From Alphaproteobacteria bacterium (GTDB lineage Bacteria; Pseudomonadota; Alphaproteobacteria; Rhodobacterales; Rhodobacteraceae): a stretch of 64,000 nucleotides of DNA. Positions 3,362 to 5,937 of this stretch are shown in pieces. The stretch covers positions 248,001 through 312,000 of the forward strand of contig JAUIFH010000005.1 in NCBI GenBank assembly GCA_030429495.1, in the 5' to 3' direction. How positions within the stretch are numbered: the first letter of the stretch is position 1; each line of letters starts with the position of its first letter. The notes below the pieces were generated by a model that worked only from the letters and a program-made list of their open reading frames with translations, made no database searches and was not told where the DNA came from. A program made the position numbers and the translations under genes.

Positions 3362-3390
3362 TTGACGCCCCTTTGAACCCTGCCTAATGT
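3362..3390 (+). promoter_or_regulatory. Promoter of the ilvBN leader
   Basis: The -35 box TTGACG (3362-3367), a 17-base spacer and the -10 box TAATGT (3385-3390) make a good sigma-70 promoter. A start near 3397 would lie about 25 bases before the leader-peptide ATG. The region just upstream is unusually A/T-rich for this genome. Confidence 0.6.
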
Positions 3391-3421
3391 CCGCTGCACA
3401 GCAGCAATGGGACCCGGGCAG

Positions 3422-3469
3422 ATGGCTTCGATCCTCGTACTTGTCAGGACATGGCGCATGGGCCGGTAA
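3422..3469 (+). CDS. ilvL: ilv leader peptide (15 residues)
   Basis: A 16-codon open frame reads MASILVLVRTWRMGR then TAA. Codons 4-8 are Ile-Leu-Val-Leu-Val (3431-3445), exactly the amino acids made by the pathway controlled downstream. It lies between a good promoter and an intrinsic terminator that precedes ilvB. This is the signature of a ribosome-mediated attenuation leader: stalling at these codons when charged branched-chain tRNAs are scarce would expose the antiterminator strand at 3453-3462. The ribosome-binding site is weak (GGG in GACCCGGGCAG). Confidence 0.85.
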   Translation: MASILVLVRTWRMGR

Positions 3470-3520
3470 CGGTAGACCATAATGGTTCCCATGCGCCCCG
3501 GATCGGATCCGGGGCTTTTT
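3453..3520 (+). promoter_or_regulatory. ilvBN transcription attenuator (antiterminator/terminator switch)
   Basis: Two mutually exclusive hairpins are visible. The antiterminator pairs GGCGCATGGG (3453-3462) with CCCATGCGCC (3488-3497), ten perfect pairs. The terminator pairs GCCCCGGAT (3495-3503) with ATCCGGGGC (3507-3515), nine perfect pairs, then TTTTT (3516-3520). They share bases 3495-3497, so only one can form fully. The antiterminator 5' arm lies at the end of the leader-peptide reading frame, so a ribosome finishing translation would cover it and allow termination. The ilvB gene follows directly. Confidence 0.88.
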
Positions 3521-3557
3521 GTTGCTAAAGGACATGGCACGGACGGAGAAAATCGAG

Positions 3558-5312
3558 ATGTCGCGGCAGATGACCGGTGCAAGGATGGTGGTTCAGGCGC
3601 TCAAGGATCAGGGCGTCGATGTGGTCTTCGGCTATCCCGGCGGCGCGGTGCTTCCGATTTATGACGAGATCTTCCAGCAGAACGACATCCGCCACATCCT
3701 CGTCCGACACGAACAGGGCGCGGTGCATATGGCCGAAGGCTACGCCCGCTCGACCGGCAAACCCGGCGTCGTCCTTGTGACCTCCGGCCCTGGCGCCACA
3801 AACGCGGTCACGGGGCTGACCGACGCCCTGATGGACTCGATCCCGATTGTCTGCCTGACCGGACAGGTCCCGACCTTCATGATCGGTACCGACGGCTTTC
3901 AGGAGGCCGATACGGTCGGCATCACCCGCCCCTGCACCAAGCATAACTGGCTGGTCAAGGACACGAACAAGCTGGCCGACACGATCCATCAGGCTTTTCA
4001 TGTCGCGACCAGAGGCCGGCCCGGCCCGGTTCTGATCGACATCCCGAAGGACGTCCAGTTCGCGACCGGCACCTACTCCGCCCCGCGCGAAACGAAGCTG
4101 GGGCACTACCAGCCGAAGGTGAAGGGCGATCTGGCCCGGATCACCGAACTGGTGGCCCTGATGGAAAAGGCCGAACGGCCGGTCTTCTATACCGGCGGCG
4201 GCGTCATCAATTCCGGCCCCGGTGCCAGCCAGCTTCTGCGCGAACTGGCCGACGCGACGGGGTTCCCGGTGACATCCACGCTGATGGGGCTTGGCGCCTA
4301 CCCCGCTTCCGGCAAGAACTGGATCGGAATGCTCGGCATGCACGGGCTTTATGAGGCCAACCTCGCGATGCATGGCTGCGACCTGATGATCAATCTCGGC
4401 GCGCGGTTCGACGACCGGATCACCGGCCGCATCGCCGATTTCAGCCCGAAATCGAAGAAGGCGCATGTCGATATCGACCCCTCGTCGATCAACAAAGTGA
4501 TCCATGTCGATATCCCGATCACCGGCGATGTCGGCCATGTTCTGGAAGACCTGATCAAGGTCTGGAAATCGCGCGGCCGCAAGGTGAACAAGGACGGCCT
4601 TGCGAAATGGTGGAGCCAGATCGAGCAGTGGAAGCTGAAGCGCTGCCTTTCCTACAAGAACTCCGACAAGGTCATCAAACCGCAATACGCATTGCAGCGG
4701 CTTGAGGAACTGACCAGGGGCCGCGACCGCTACATCACGACCGAGGTCGGCCAGCACCAGATGTGGGCGGCGCAATATCTCGGCTTCGACGCGCCGAACC
4801 GCTGGATGACGTCAGGCGGGCTTGGCACGATGGGATACGGCTTCCCGGCTTCGATCGGGGTGCAGATCGCCCATCCAGATGCACTGGTGATCTGTGTCGC
4901 TGGCGAGGCATCCTGGCTGATGAACATGCAGGAGATGGGAACCGCGACCCAGTTCCGCACCCCGGTCAAGCAGTTCATCCTGAACAACGAACGGCTCGGC
5001 ATGGTGCGGCAGTGGCAGCAGCTTCTGCACGGCGAGCGGTATTCGCATTCCTGGTCGGAAAGCCTGCCCGATTTCGTGAAACTGGCCGAGGCCTTCGGCT
5101 GGAAGGGCATCCAGTGTTCGGATCCGAAGGACCTCGACGCCGCGATCATGGAGATGATCGACTACGACGGGCCGGTCCTGTTTGACTGCCTGGTCGAGAA
5201 GCACGAGAACTGCTTCCCGATGATCCCGTCGGGCAAGCCGCATAACGAGATGCTGCTGGGCGACGCCTCGACCGAGGGCGCAATTCAGGCCGGCGGCGCG
5301 GTGCTGGTATAA
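3558..5312 (+). CDS. ilvB: Acetolactate synthase large (catalytic) subunit
   Basis: This 584-residue thiamine-diphosphate enzyme condenses two pyruvates, or pyruvate with 2-oxobutyrate, in the first common step of Val/Leu/Ile synthesis. It has the family features: VFGYPGGAVLPIYDEIF, the catalytic Glu in RHEQGAVHMAEGYAR, and the TPP/Mg-binding part from about residue 440 to 500. The ATG at 3558 (MSRQMTGARM) is chosen because a GGAG lies about 9 bases upstream and because earlier in-frame TTG/ATG codons lie in or next to the terminator U-tract. The ATG at 3534 is the alternative. It is the first structural gene after the attenuator, and ilvN follows after a repeat element. Confidence 0.95.
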   Translation: MSRQMTGARMVVQALKDQGVDVVFGYPGGAVLPIYDEIFQQNDIRHILVRHEQGAVHMAEGYARSTGKPGVVLVTSGPGATNAVTGLTDALMDSIPIVCLTGQVPTFMIGTDGFQEADTVGITRPCTKHNWLVKDTNKLADTIHQAFHVATRGRPGPVLIDIPKDVQFATGTYSAPRETKLGHYQPKVKGDLARITELVALMEKAERPVFYTGGGVINSGPGASQLLRELADATGFPVTSTLMGLGAYPASGKNWIGMLGMHGLYEANLAMHGCDLMINLGARFDDRITGRIADFSPKSKKAHVDIDPSSINKVIHVDIPITGDVGHVLEDLIKVWKSRGRKVNKDGLAKWWSQIEQWKLKRCLSYKNSDKVIKPQYALQRLEELTRGRDRYITTEVGQHQMWAAQYLGFDAPNRWMTSGGLGTMGYGFPASIGVQIAHPDALVICVAGEASWLMNMQEMGTATQFRTPVKQFILNNERLGMVRQWQQLLHGERYSHSWSESLPDFVKLAEAFGWKGIQCSDPKDLDAAIMEMIDYDGPVLFDCLVEKHENCFPMIPSGKPHNEMLLGDASTEGAIQAGGAVLV

Positions 5313-5376: not shown

Positions 5377-5937
5377 ATGTCCGCACTGAAGATCAAGAAG
5401 GGCGCTTCCAGCCATTCCGCCTATGACCTGCGCGATCCGAATGCCGAGGTCATCGGATCGCACACGCTGGCGGTTCTCGTGGATAACGAGGCCGGTGTGC
5501 TGGCGCGGGTGATCGGCCTGTTCTCAGGCCGCGGCTACAATATCGAGAGCCTGACCGTGGCCGAAGTGGACCATGAGGGCCATCGCAGCCGGATTACCGT
5601 GGTGACGACCGGAACGGCGGCCGTGGTCGAGCAGATCAAGGCGCAGCTCGGCCGGCTGGTGCCGGTTCACGACGTGCATGACCTGACGGTTGAGGGGCCG
5701 TCGGTGGAACGGGAACTCGCGCTCTTCAAGGTGGCCGGGACCGGCGAGAAACGCGTCGAGGCGCTGCGCCTTGCCGATATCTTCCGTGCGAATGTGGTGG
5801 ATTCGACGCTCGAAAGCTTTGTCTTCGAGATTACCGGGACACCCGAGAAGATCGACGCCTTCGCCGAGCTGATGCGGCCGCTTGGCCTTGTCGACGTGGC
5901 GCGGACGGGGGTTGCGGCGCTCGCCCGCGGCGCCTGA
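5377..5937 (+). CDS. ilvN: Acetolactate synthase small (regulatory) subunit
   Basis: This 186-residue partner of IlvB confers full activity and valine feedback inhibition. An N-terminal ACT domain starts at about residue 28 (HTLAVLVDNEAGVLARVIGL) and includes the conserved GRGYNIESLTV. The C-terminal AHAS_S domain follows. A GAGGG in GAAGAGGGCAGC precedes the ATG. The first 25 residues form a polar extension often seen in this family's alphaproteobacterial members. It is cotranscribed with ilvB under the attenuator. Confidence 0.95.
   Translation: MSALKIKKGASSHSAYDLRDPNAEVIGSHTLAVLVDNEAGVLARVIGLFSGRGYNIESLTVAEVDHEGHRSRITVVTTGTAAVVEQIKAQLGRLVPVHDVHDLTVEGPSVERELALFKVAGTGEKRVEALRLADIFRANVVDSTLESFVFEITGTPEKIDAFAELMRPLGLVDVARTGVAALARGA

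What the first reader, a model, noticed from the sequence alone, without database searches (positions are those of the whole stretch)
3362..3558. Complete ribosome-mediated attenuator in front of ilvBN
The sequence shows all parts in order: promoter (TTGACG-N17-TAATGT), a 15-residue leader peptide with consecutive Ile-Leu-Val-Leu-Val codons (3431-3445), a ten-pair antiterminator (3453-3462 with 3488-3497), a nine-pair terminator with TTTTT (3495-3520) that shares bases 3495-3497 with the antiterminator, then ilvB. The leader stop at 3467-3469 is placed so that a ribosome finishing translation would mask the antiterminator arm. That the system responds to branched-chain aminoacyl-tRNA is inferred from known ilv leaders. 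The leader gene is too short for usual gene callers.
Basis: partly seen in the sequence, partly recalled or inferred. Interest (0 to 1): 0.72.

Follow-up and report, generated by a model that had tools for sequence, protein, structure and literature searches.

The report
Branched-chain amino acid attenuator before ilvB
A short coding leader and two hairpins in front of ilvBN very probably let ribosomes sense the supply of isoleucine, leucine and valine; this is a known kind of switch, but the same RNA layout also sits in front of efflux-pump genes in other bacteria.

Summary
It is conserved: 72 of 80 fetched ilvB loci keep it and 168 of 198 family genomes hit a model of it. Leader codons are biased (GTA 102 of 177 Val codons, against 121 of 3218 in ilvB), and arms of divergent relatives pair best with their own partners (90 of 20000 permutations as good). 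Ribosome-mediated attenuation of ilvBN is the best reading, a known kind. One correction: stem and terminator share only 2-3 bases and can stand together, so the stem more likely steals the terminator's closing pairs. Less expected: the same layout precedes Bcr/CflA-like MFS exporter genes in 19 loci outside the family, 4 inside it and 3 on named Rhodobacterales plasmids, and the Rfam 'sRNA' Atu_C8 lies before such genes at the 2 loci over its cut-off that I saw. No expression data were available.

The parts
3362..3390 (+). sigma-70-like promoter, TTGACG-N17-TAATGT
   Evidence: Letters. In 73 aligned loci a TTGAC..TAnnnT pattern lies upstream, 71 with no mismatch and 2 with one, 71 at the same spacing (no shuffle control was run for this count).
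3422..3469 (+). leader ORF, MASILVLVRTWRMGR and TAA stop
   Evidence: Start aligned in relatives; 68 of 73 have an SD-like 4-mer 3-15 nt upstream. The window's own SD is weak (by eye).
3431..3445 (+). regulatory codons Ile-Leu-Val-Leu-Val
   Evidence: In 73 of 73 leaders 4 or 5 of these five positions are I, L or V; 62 of 73 hold all three residues. Codon bias.
3453..3462 (+). 5' arm of stem P1 (proposed antiterminator), inside the last codons of the leader
   Evidence: 9 of the 10 pairs kept in 68 or more of 73, the outermost in 42 of 73. Third base of codon -5 is G in 73 of 73 although the residue varies.
3463..3472 (+). nested hairpin CCG-GUAA-CGG; the stop codon is the last three bases of the loop
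   Evidence: 96.8% of cells paired; outer pair changed on both sides in 3 sequences. Stops TAA 55, TGA 17, TAG 1 of 73.
3475..3487 (+). possible second inner hairpin (GACCA-UAA-UGGUU)
   Evidence: Pairs in the window's own fold; not in the consensus fold. CC at 3477-3478 is invariant in the 73.
3488..3497 (+). 3' arm of stem P1; 3495-3497 shared with the terminator
   Evidence: 3491-3497 are invariant in 73 of 73.
3495..3520 (+). intrinsic terminator, 9-bp stem and T5
   Evidence: Five pairs with changes on both sides, 28 cells, 0 of 500 shuffles as high.
3558..5312 (+). ilvB, acetolactate synthase large subunit
   Evidence: TPP-enzyme N, M and C domains (Pfam). Start at 3558 inferred from relatives that match from residue 1.
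5377..5937 (+). ilvN, acetolactate synthase small subunit
   Evidence: ALS_ss_C and ACT domains (Pfam).

Best explanation
A ribosome-mediated transcription attenuator of ilvBN. When charged Ile-, Leu- or Val-tRNA is short, the leading ribosome stalls in 3431-3445 and leaves 3453-3462 free. P1 forms, with the stop codon held in its nested hairpin, and takes the 2-3 bases (3495-3497) that close the terminator; the terminator then gains little by completing itself and RNA polymerase reads on into ilvB. When the amino acids are plentiful the ribosome reaches the stop at 3467-3469, covers the 5' arm of P1, the full terminator forms and transcription ends near 3520. Shown here: anatomy, conservation, codon bias, paired arms, computed energies. 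Inferred: translation of the leader, stalling, termination near 3520, direction of the response. The capture of the closing pairs is the least certain step (about 0.5).
For: Element in 72 of 80 ilvB loci and 168 of 198 family genomes. I/L/V class kept at codons -12 to -8 while the bases vary. Codon bias against ilvB of the same genomes: GTA 102/177 v 121/3218, CTA 32/105 v 35/3420, CTT 56/105 v 370/3420, ATT 36/67 v 317/2590. G of codon -5, third position, in 73 of 73; it pairs with C3496 at the terminator foot. Stop-codon hairpin with changes on both sides in 3 sequences; terminator covaries. In 15 divergent loci own arms pair better than swapped arms, 90 of 20000 permutations as good; L189 has a different, fully complementary stem, 0 of 28 swaps as good. 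Completing the shared pairs is worth a median 9.9 kcal/mol without P1 and 1.5 with it.
Against: P1 and terminator can stand together; in the window itself the terminator foot pairs at 0.78, and at 1.00 in one of the settings with P1 free. With a 15-nt footprint the last two regulatory codons already cover part of P1 (terminator foot 0.94-0.99). P1 has no pair changed on both sides in the 73 rows, and 'pairs with a change on both sides' is reached by 159 of 500 shuffles for P1 plus stop hairpin. In the swap test 2 of 15 loci (L185, L190) pair worse than the swap mean. Six of six Paracoccus loci lack the element. In L193 the stem and terminator do not overlap at all.
Confidence: 0.82

Rival explanations
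1. The terminated leader RNA or its peptide also acts in trans, which would explain the nearly invariant P1 and the RMGR end.
For: Arms and C-terminal codons vary far less than pairing alone needs. The trp leader of Sinorhizobium is described as a dual-function sRNA with a functional peptide (passages).
Against: Divergent relatives change arms and peptide end while keeping I/L/V codons and pairing. Position before ilvB is kept. No trans target was looked for.
Confidence: 0.12
2. A constitutive or otherwise regulated terminator (for example a small-molecule switch); the leader ORF is incidental.
For: The terminator stem is the best-covarying part. No expression data.
Against: I/L/V class and codon bias of the leader; stop codon fixed inside P1; no Rfam family at gathering score.
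Confidence: 0.04
3. The 10-bp inverted repeat is a DNA operator for a repressor.
For: Perfect inverted repeat in DNA.
Against: Several changes keep only G-U pairs, spacing of the arms varies from 23 to 27, and the arms are replaced together in L189.
Confidence: 0.02

Closest known systems
ilv attenuators of Alphaproteobacteria: Caulobacter ilvBN, 'ilvB leader peptide', S. meliloti ilvIH cis element
   Same: Leader with branched-chain codons before acetolactate synthase genes, read as attenuation (passages of PMC4117421; PMC1273637; PMC2573895, which cite Tarleton 1994 and Vitreschak 2004).
   Different: The two primary papers are not held, so sequence, overlap of stems and stop-codon hairpin could not be compared; whether they cover Rhodobacterales is not known to me.
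trp, his and leu type attenuators of Escherichia coli (recalled)
   Same: Regulatory codons, antiterminator and terminator, stop codon near the switch.
   Different: Recalled: those stems share a whole arm and there is a 1:2 hairpin; here the shared part is 2-3 bp and no conserved 1:2 hairpin shows.
uORFC-8-2 motif before cysS in Rhodobacterales
   Same: Short ORF, two stems, terminator, proposed as ribosome-mediated attenuation (section 24 of PMC8632094).
   Different: Cysteine codons, which lie inside the first stem.
Rfam RF02502 Atu_C8, 'Rhizobiales sRNA'
   Same: Stem with GCGCAUGGG, nested hairpin around an in-frame stop, then terminator; an I/L/V-rich short ORF at both loci over the cut-off.
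   Different: The window scores 21.7 bits against a cut-off of 50; in L193 the stem does not overlap the terminator; the next gene is an MFS exporter.

Membership tests
ribosome-mediated transcription attenuator | leader ORF rich in codons for the operon's product | tested here: met
   73 of 73 leaders have 4 or 5 of five I/L/V; bias.
ribosome-mediated transcription attenuator | intrinsic terminator before the first gene | tested here: met
   Covarying stem and T-run.
ribosome-mediated transcription attenuator | antiterminator that excludes the terminator | tested here: inconclusive
   Overlap of 2-3 bp only; both can stand together, but completion energy falls from a median 9.9 to 1.5 kcal/mol.
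ribosome-mediated transcription attenuator | ribosome at the stop masks the antiterminator arm, a stalled one does not | tested here: inconclusive
   Geometry fits for the first regulatory codons; for the last two it depends on the footprint assumed.
ribosome-mediated transcription attenuator | read-through rises on starvation for the amino acids | not testable with these tools
   No expression data.
Rfam RF02502 Atu_C8 | score at or above the gathering cut-off of 50 bits | tested here: not met
   21.7 bits, E 0.03, full length of the model.
classical attenuator with a 1:2 pause hairpin | conserved hairpin upstream of the antiterminator | tested here: not met
   None in the consensus fold of 73 sequences.

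The most novel reading that the evidence does not exclude
One RNA chassis (I/L/V-run leader, stem over its last codons, stop codon in a nested hairpin, terminator at once behind) serves two outputs in Alphaproteobacteria: ilvB with mixed Ile/Leu/Val leaders, and Bcr/CflA-like exporters with mainly valine leaders; the orphan Rfam sRNA Atu_C8 is the terminated product of the second. In the exporter form the trigger would be slowing of ribosomes in the leader, by valine shortage or by a compound that acts on ribosomes.
Probability: 0.5. Interest if true: 0.66.

Novelty: new variant of a known kind. Interest (0 to 1): 0.46.

Why it matters
The ilvBN switch is ordinary biology of a known kind. What would matter is that a recognisable attenuator layout is reused before genes of another purpose, that an uncharacterised Rfam sRNA gains a testable role as a cis-acting leader, and that the very small overlap gives a clean test of how little an antiterminator must take from a terminator.

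Tried and rejected
Rfam at gathering score over the window: two tRNAs only. R1 class-level hits below 34 bits other than L104 (L102, L103, L105-L110, 8 loci) look like plain terminators and were not counted as members. L192 could not be assigned to ilvB or exporter. A strict GNRA-loop rule for the stop-codon hairpin was dropped: TAG stops occur in L021 and often in the exporter set. Covariation in the exporter set A3 gives no support beyond shuffles (266, 149, 149, 475 and 75 of 500 as high). The pairing of the 5' region with the terminator in the window's own fold is absent from the consensus. True ilvB loci in ten genomes with exporter-type elements (L116-L125): my script printed six upstream regions in the right orientation; none has leader, stem and T-run together, though L121 and L123 have short ORFs with three successive I/L/V; four were printed on the wrong strand and not read. 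Both models run over all ten gave at most 18.0 bits. The swap test kept L181, whose terminator the script misplaced. Searches that found no paper: ilvB, leader peptide and Roseobacter; leader peptide, Bcr CflA and attenuation; Atu_C8 names (two unrelated papers). Nothing wider is claimed about print.

Full report
Observation. ilvB (584 aa from 3558) and ilvN follow, and a sodium/calcium exchanger gene lies upstream.

Conservation. In 72 of 80 a script found the leader, P1 and a T-run in order. The misses are six Paracoccus loci, which keep a TTGACC sequence upstream but give no model match at E 10, L035, cut by its contig end and still 45.5 bits, and L063 with 14.8 bits. A covariance model, R1, built from these 72 and the window hits 168 of 198 family genomes. 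Of the 168, 14 with weak or double hits were followed up: 16 places, 11 before ilvB, 4 before an MFS exporter, 1 unassigned. G001, G004 and G008 have only an exporter-type hit, so at most 165 are ilvB-type. Nine further family loci (L083-L091) and both copies in G024 (L111, L112) hold ilvB; the rest were not inspected. The window's own genome has one copy; its nearest exporter homologue (41% identical) has none.

Peptide and RNA. Codons -12 to -8 keep I, L or V at 4 or 5 of five positions in 73 of 73, and 62 of 73 hold all three, while the bases vary. Synonyms are skewed away from those of ilvB in the same genomes; in five genes of the window GTA is 1 of 135 Val codons. Codon -5 varies in residue but ends in G in 73 of 73; that G pairs with C3496. 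Elf and Ehrenberg note strong codon bias in attenuation leaders, not always towards rare codons (passages of PMC1183508). The hairpin around the stop codon is paired in 96.8% of cells, three sequences changed on both sides of the outer pair. The terminator covaries at five pairs. P1 is too invariant to test in the 73 rows: no pair changes on both sides, and the count of such pairs for P1 plus stop hairpin is reached by 159 of 500 shuffles. In 15 divergent loci own arms pair better than swapped ones (mean -18.5 against -16.5 kcal/mol; 90 of 20000 permutations as good); 13 of 15 beat their own swap mean, L185 and L190 do not, and L189 has a different, fully complementary stem.

Mechanism. P1 begins in the last codons of the leader, so a ribosome at the stop covers its 5' arm. 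Exclusion of the terminator is weak. The shared part is 2 bp in 31 and 3 bp in 42 of 73; the consensus fold shows both stems together; with P1 free the terminator foot pairs with mean probability 0.64-0.73, with P1 covered 0.99. In the window the value with P1 free is 0.78 in most settings and 1.00 in one. But completing the shared pairs is worth a median 9.9 kcal/mol (4.4 to 9.9) without P1 and 1.5 (from 3.4 gained to 1.0 lost) with it. Closing the foot of the hairpin against the RNA-DNA hybrid is generally held to drive termination (recalled), so P1 may remove that drive. No conserved hairpin upstream of P1 was found, so an untranslated leader should read through (inference).

Same layout before exporters. 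The class-wide R1 search hit 23 of 385 genomes: 5 in the family, 11 with a real-looking element (L092-L101, 43-77 bits, and L104, 31 bits), and 7 with only weak hits that look like plain terminators. A search of the order of G345 added 8 loci (9 of 17 genomes hit). In all 19 outside-family loci a homologue of one MFS exporter begins some 20-60 bases beyond the element, and no ilvB was found in the stretch held. Four of these proteins were scanned: TIGR00710 (Bcr/CflA efflux) is the best family for each, over the cut-off in three and just under in one (199.3 against 200.9). A second model from the 19 (R2) hit 19 of 385 class genomes, among them the same 11 and the five of the family. Inside the family four loci are exporter-type, and G086 carries both types. 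Of six plasmid records opened, three named Rhodobacterales plasmids (Roseobacter denitrificans, Phaeobacter piscinae, Leisingera caerulea) have the element at 74-80 bits before the exporter, with no leader gene in the PLSDB table, which is incomplete. Of 20 family exporters fetched as best protein matches only 2 have the element, so most lack it. Exporter leaders are mainly valine (66 V, 11 I, 7 L in 225 residues of 23 leaders). The exporter alignment has conserved pairs but no covariation beyond shuffles, so common descent rests on model scores; convergence is not excluded.

Atu_C8. The best weak Rfam match of the window is RF02502 over its full length (21.7 bits, E 0.03). RF02502 passes its cut-off in 1 of 385 class genomes (G304) and below it hits ilvB leaders in G448 and in G385, a genome of another family. 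It also passes in Rhizobium lusitanum (111.5 bits). At both loci over the cut-off an I/L/V-rich short ORF lies inside and the exporter homologue follows. I read Atu_C8 as an attenuator leader; that rests on two loci. Its stem and terminator do not overlap in L193, so capture of the closing pairs cannot be general. Atu_C8 as a detected RNA is recalled from its Rfam naming; the source paper is not held.

Verdict. A well-supported member of a known kind, in a form with a very small overlap and a stop-codon hairpin, and part of a wider set of similar leaders that also precede exporter genes.

Noticed in passing
L092-L101, L104, L136-L143; L179, L186, L190, L191; L200-L202: The same RNA layout precedes Bcr/CflA-like MFS exporter genes instead of ilvB.
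   Followed up: partly
L193 1501-1620; L203 757-876: Rfam 'Rhizobiales sRNA Atu_C8' holds an I/L/V-rich short ORF and lies before an MFS exporter homologue.
   Followed up: partly
window 3477-3478: CC in the inner part of P1 is invariant in all 73 sequences although its GG partner is missing in some; unexplained.
   Followed up: no
L029, L047, L054, L062, L074, L075: Six of six Paracoccus ilvB loci lack the attenuator but keep a TTGACC sequence upstream.
   Followed up: no
L199 824-940 (Agrobacterium tumefaciens plasmid pAt2): A TPP riboswitch match (74.6 bits) stands before a related MFS gene.
   Followed up: no
L111 and L112 (genome G024): One genome has two ilvB copies, each with the element.
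   Followed up: no
L116 and L119, upstream of ilvB: Terminator-like hairpins with T-runs but no recognisable branched-chain leader; model scores 13-18 bits.
   Followed up: no
L194 1501-1624: ilvB of another family has a leader MSLLIVPCAPNEGLA and, by eye, a stem of quite different sequence with the stop codon in a nested hairpin and no overlap with the terminator.
   Followed up: partly
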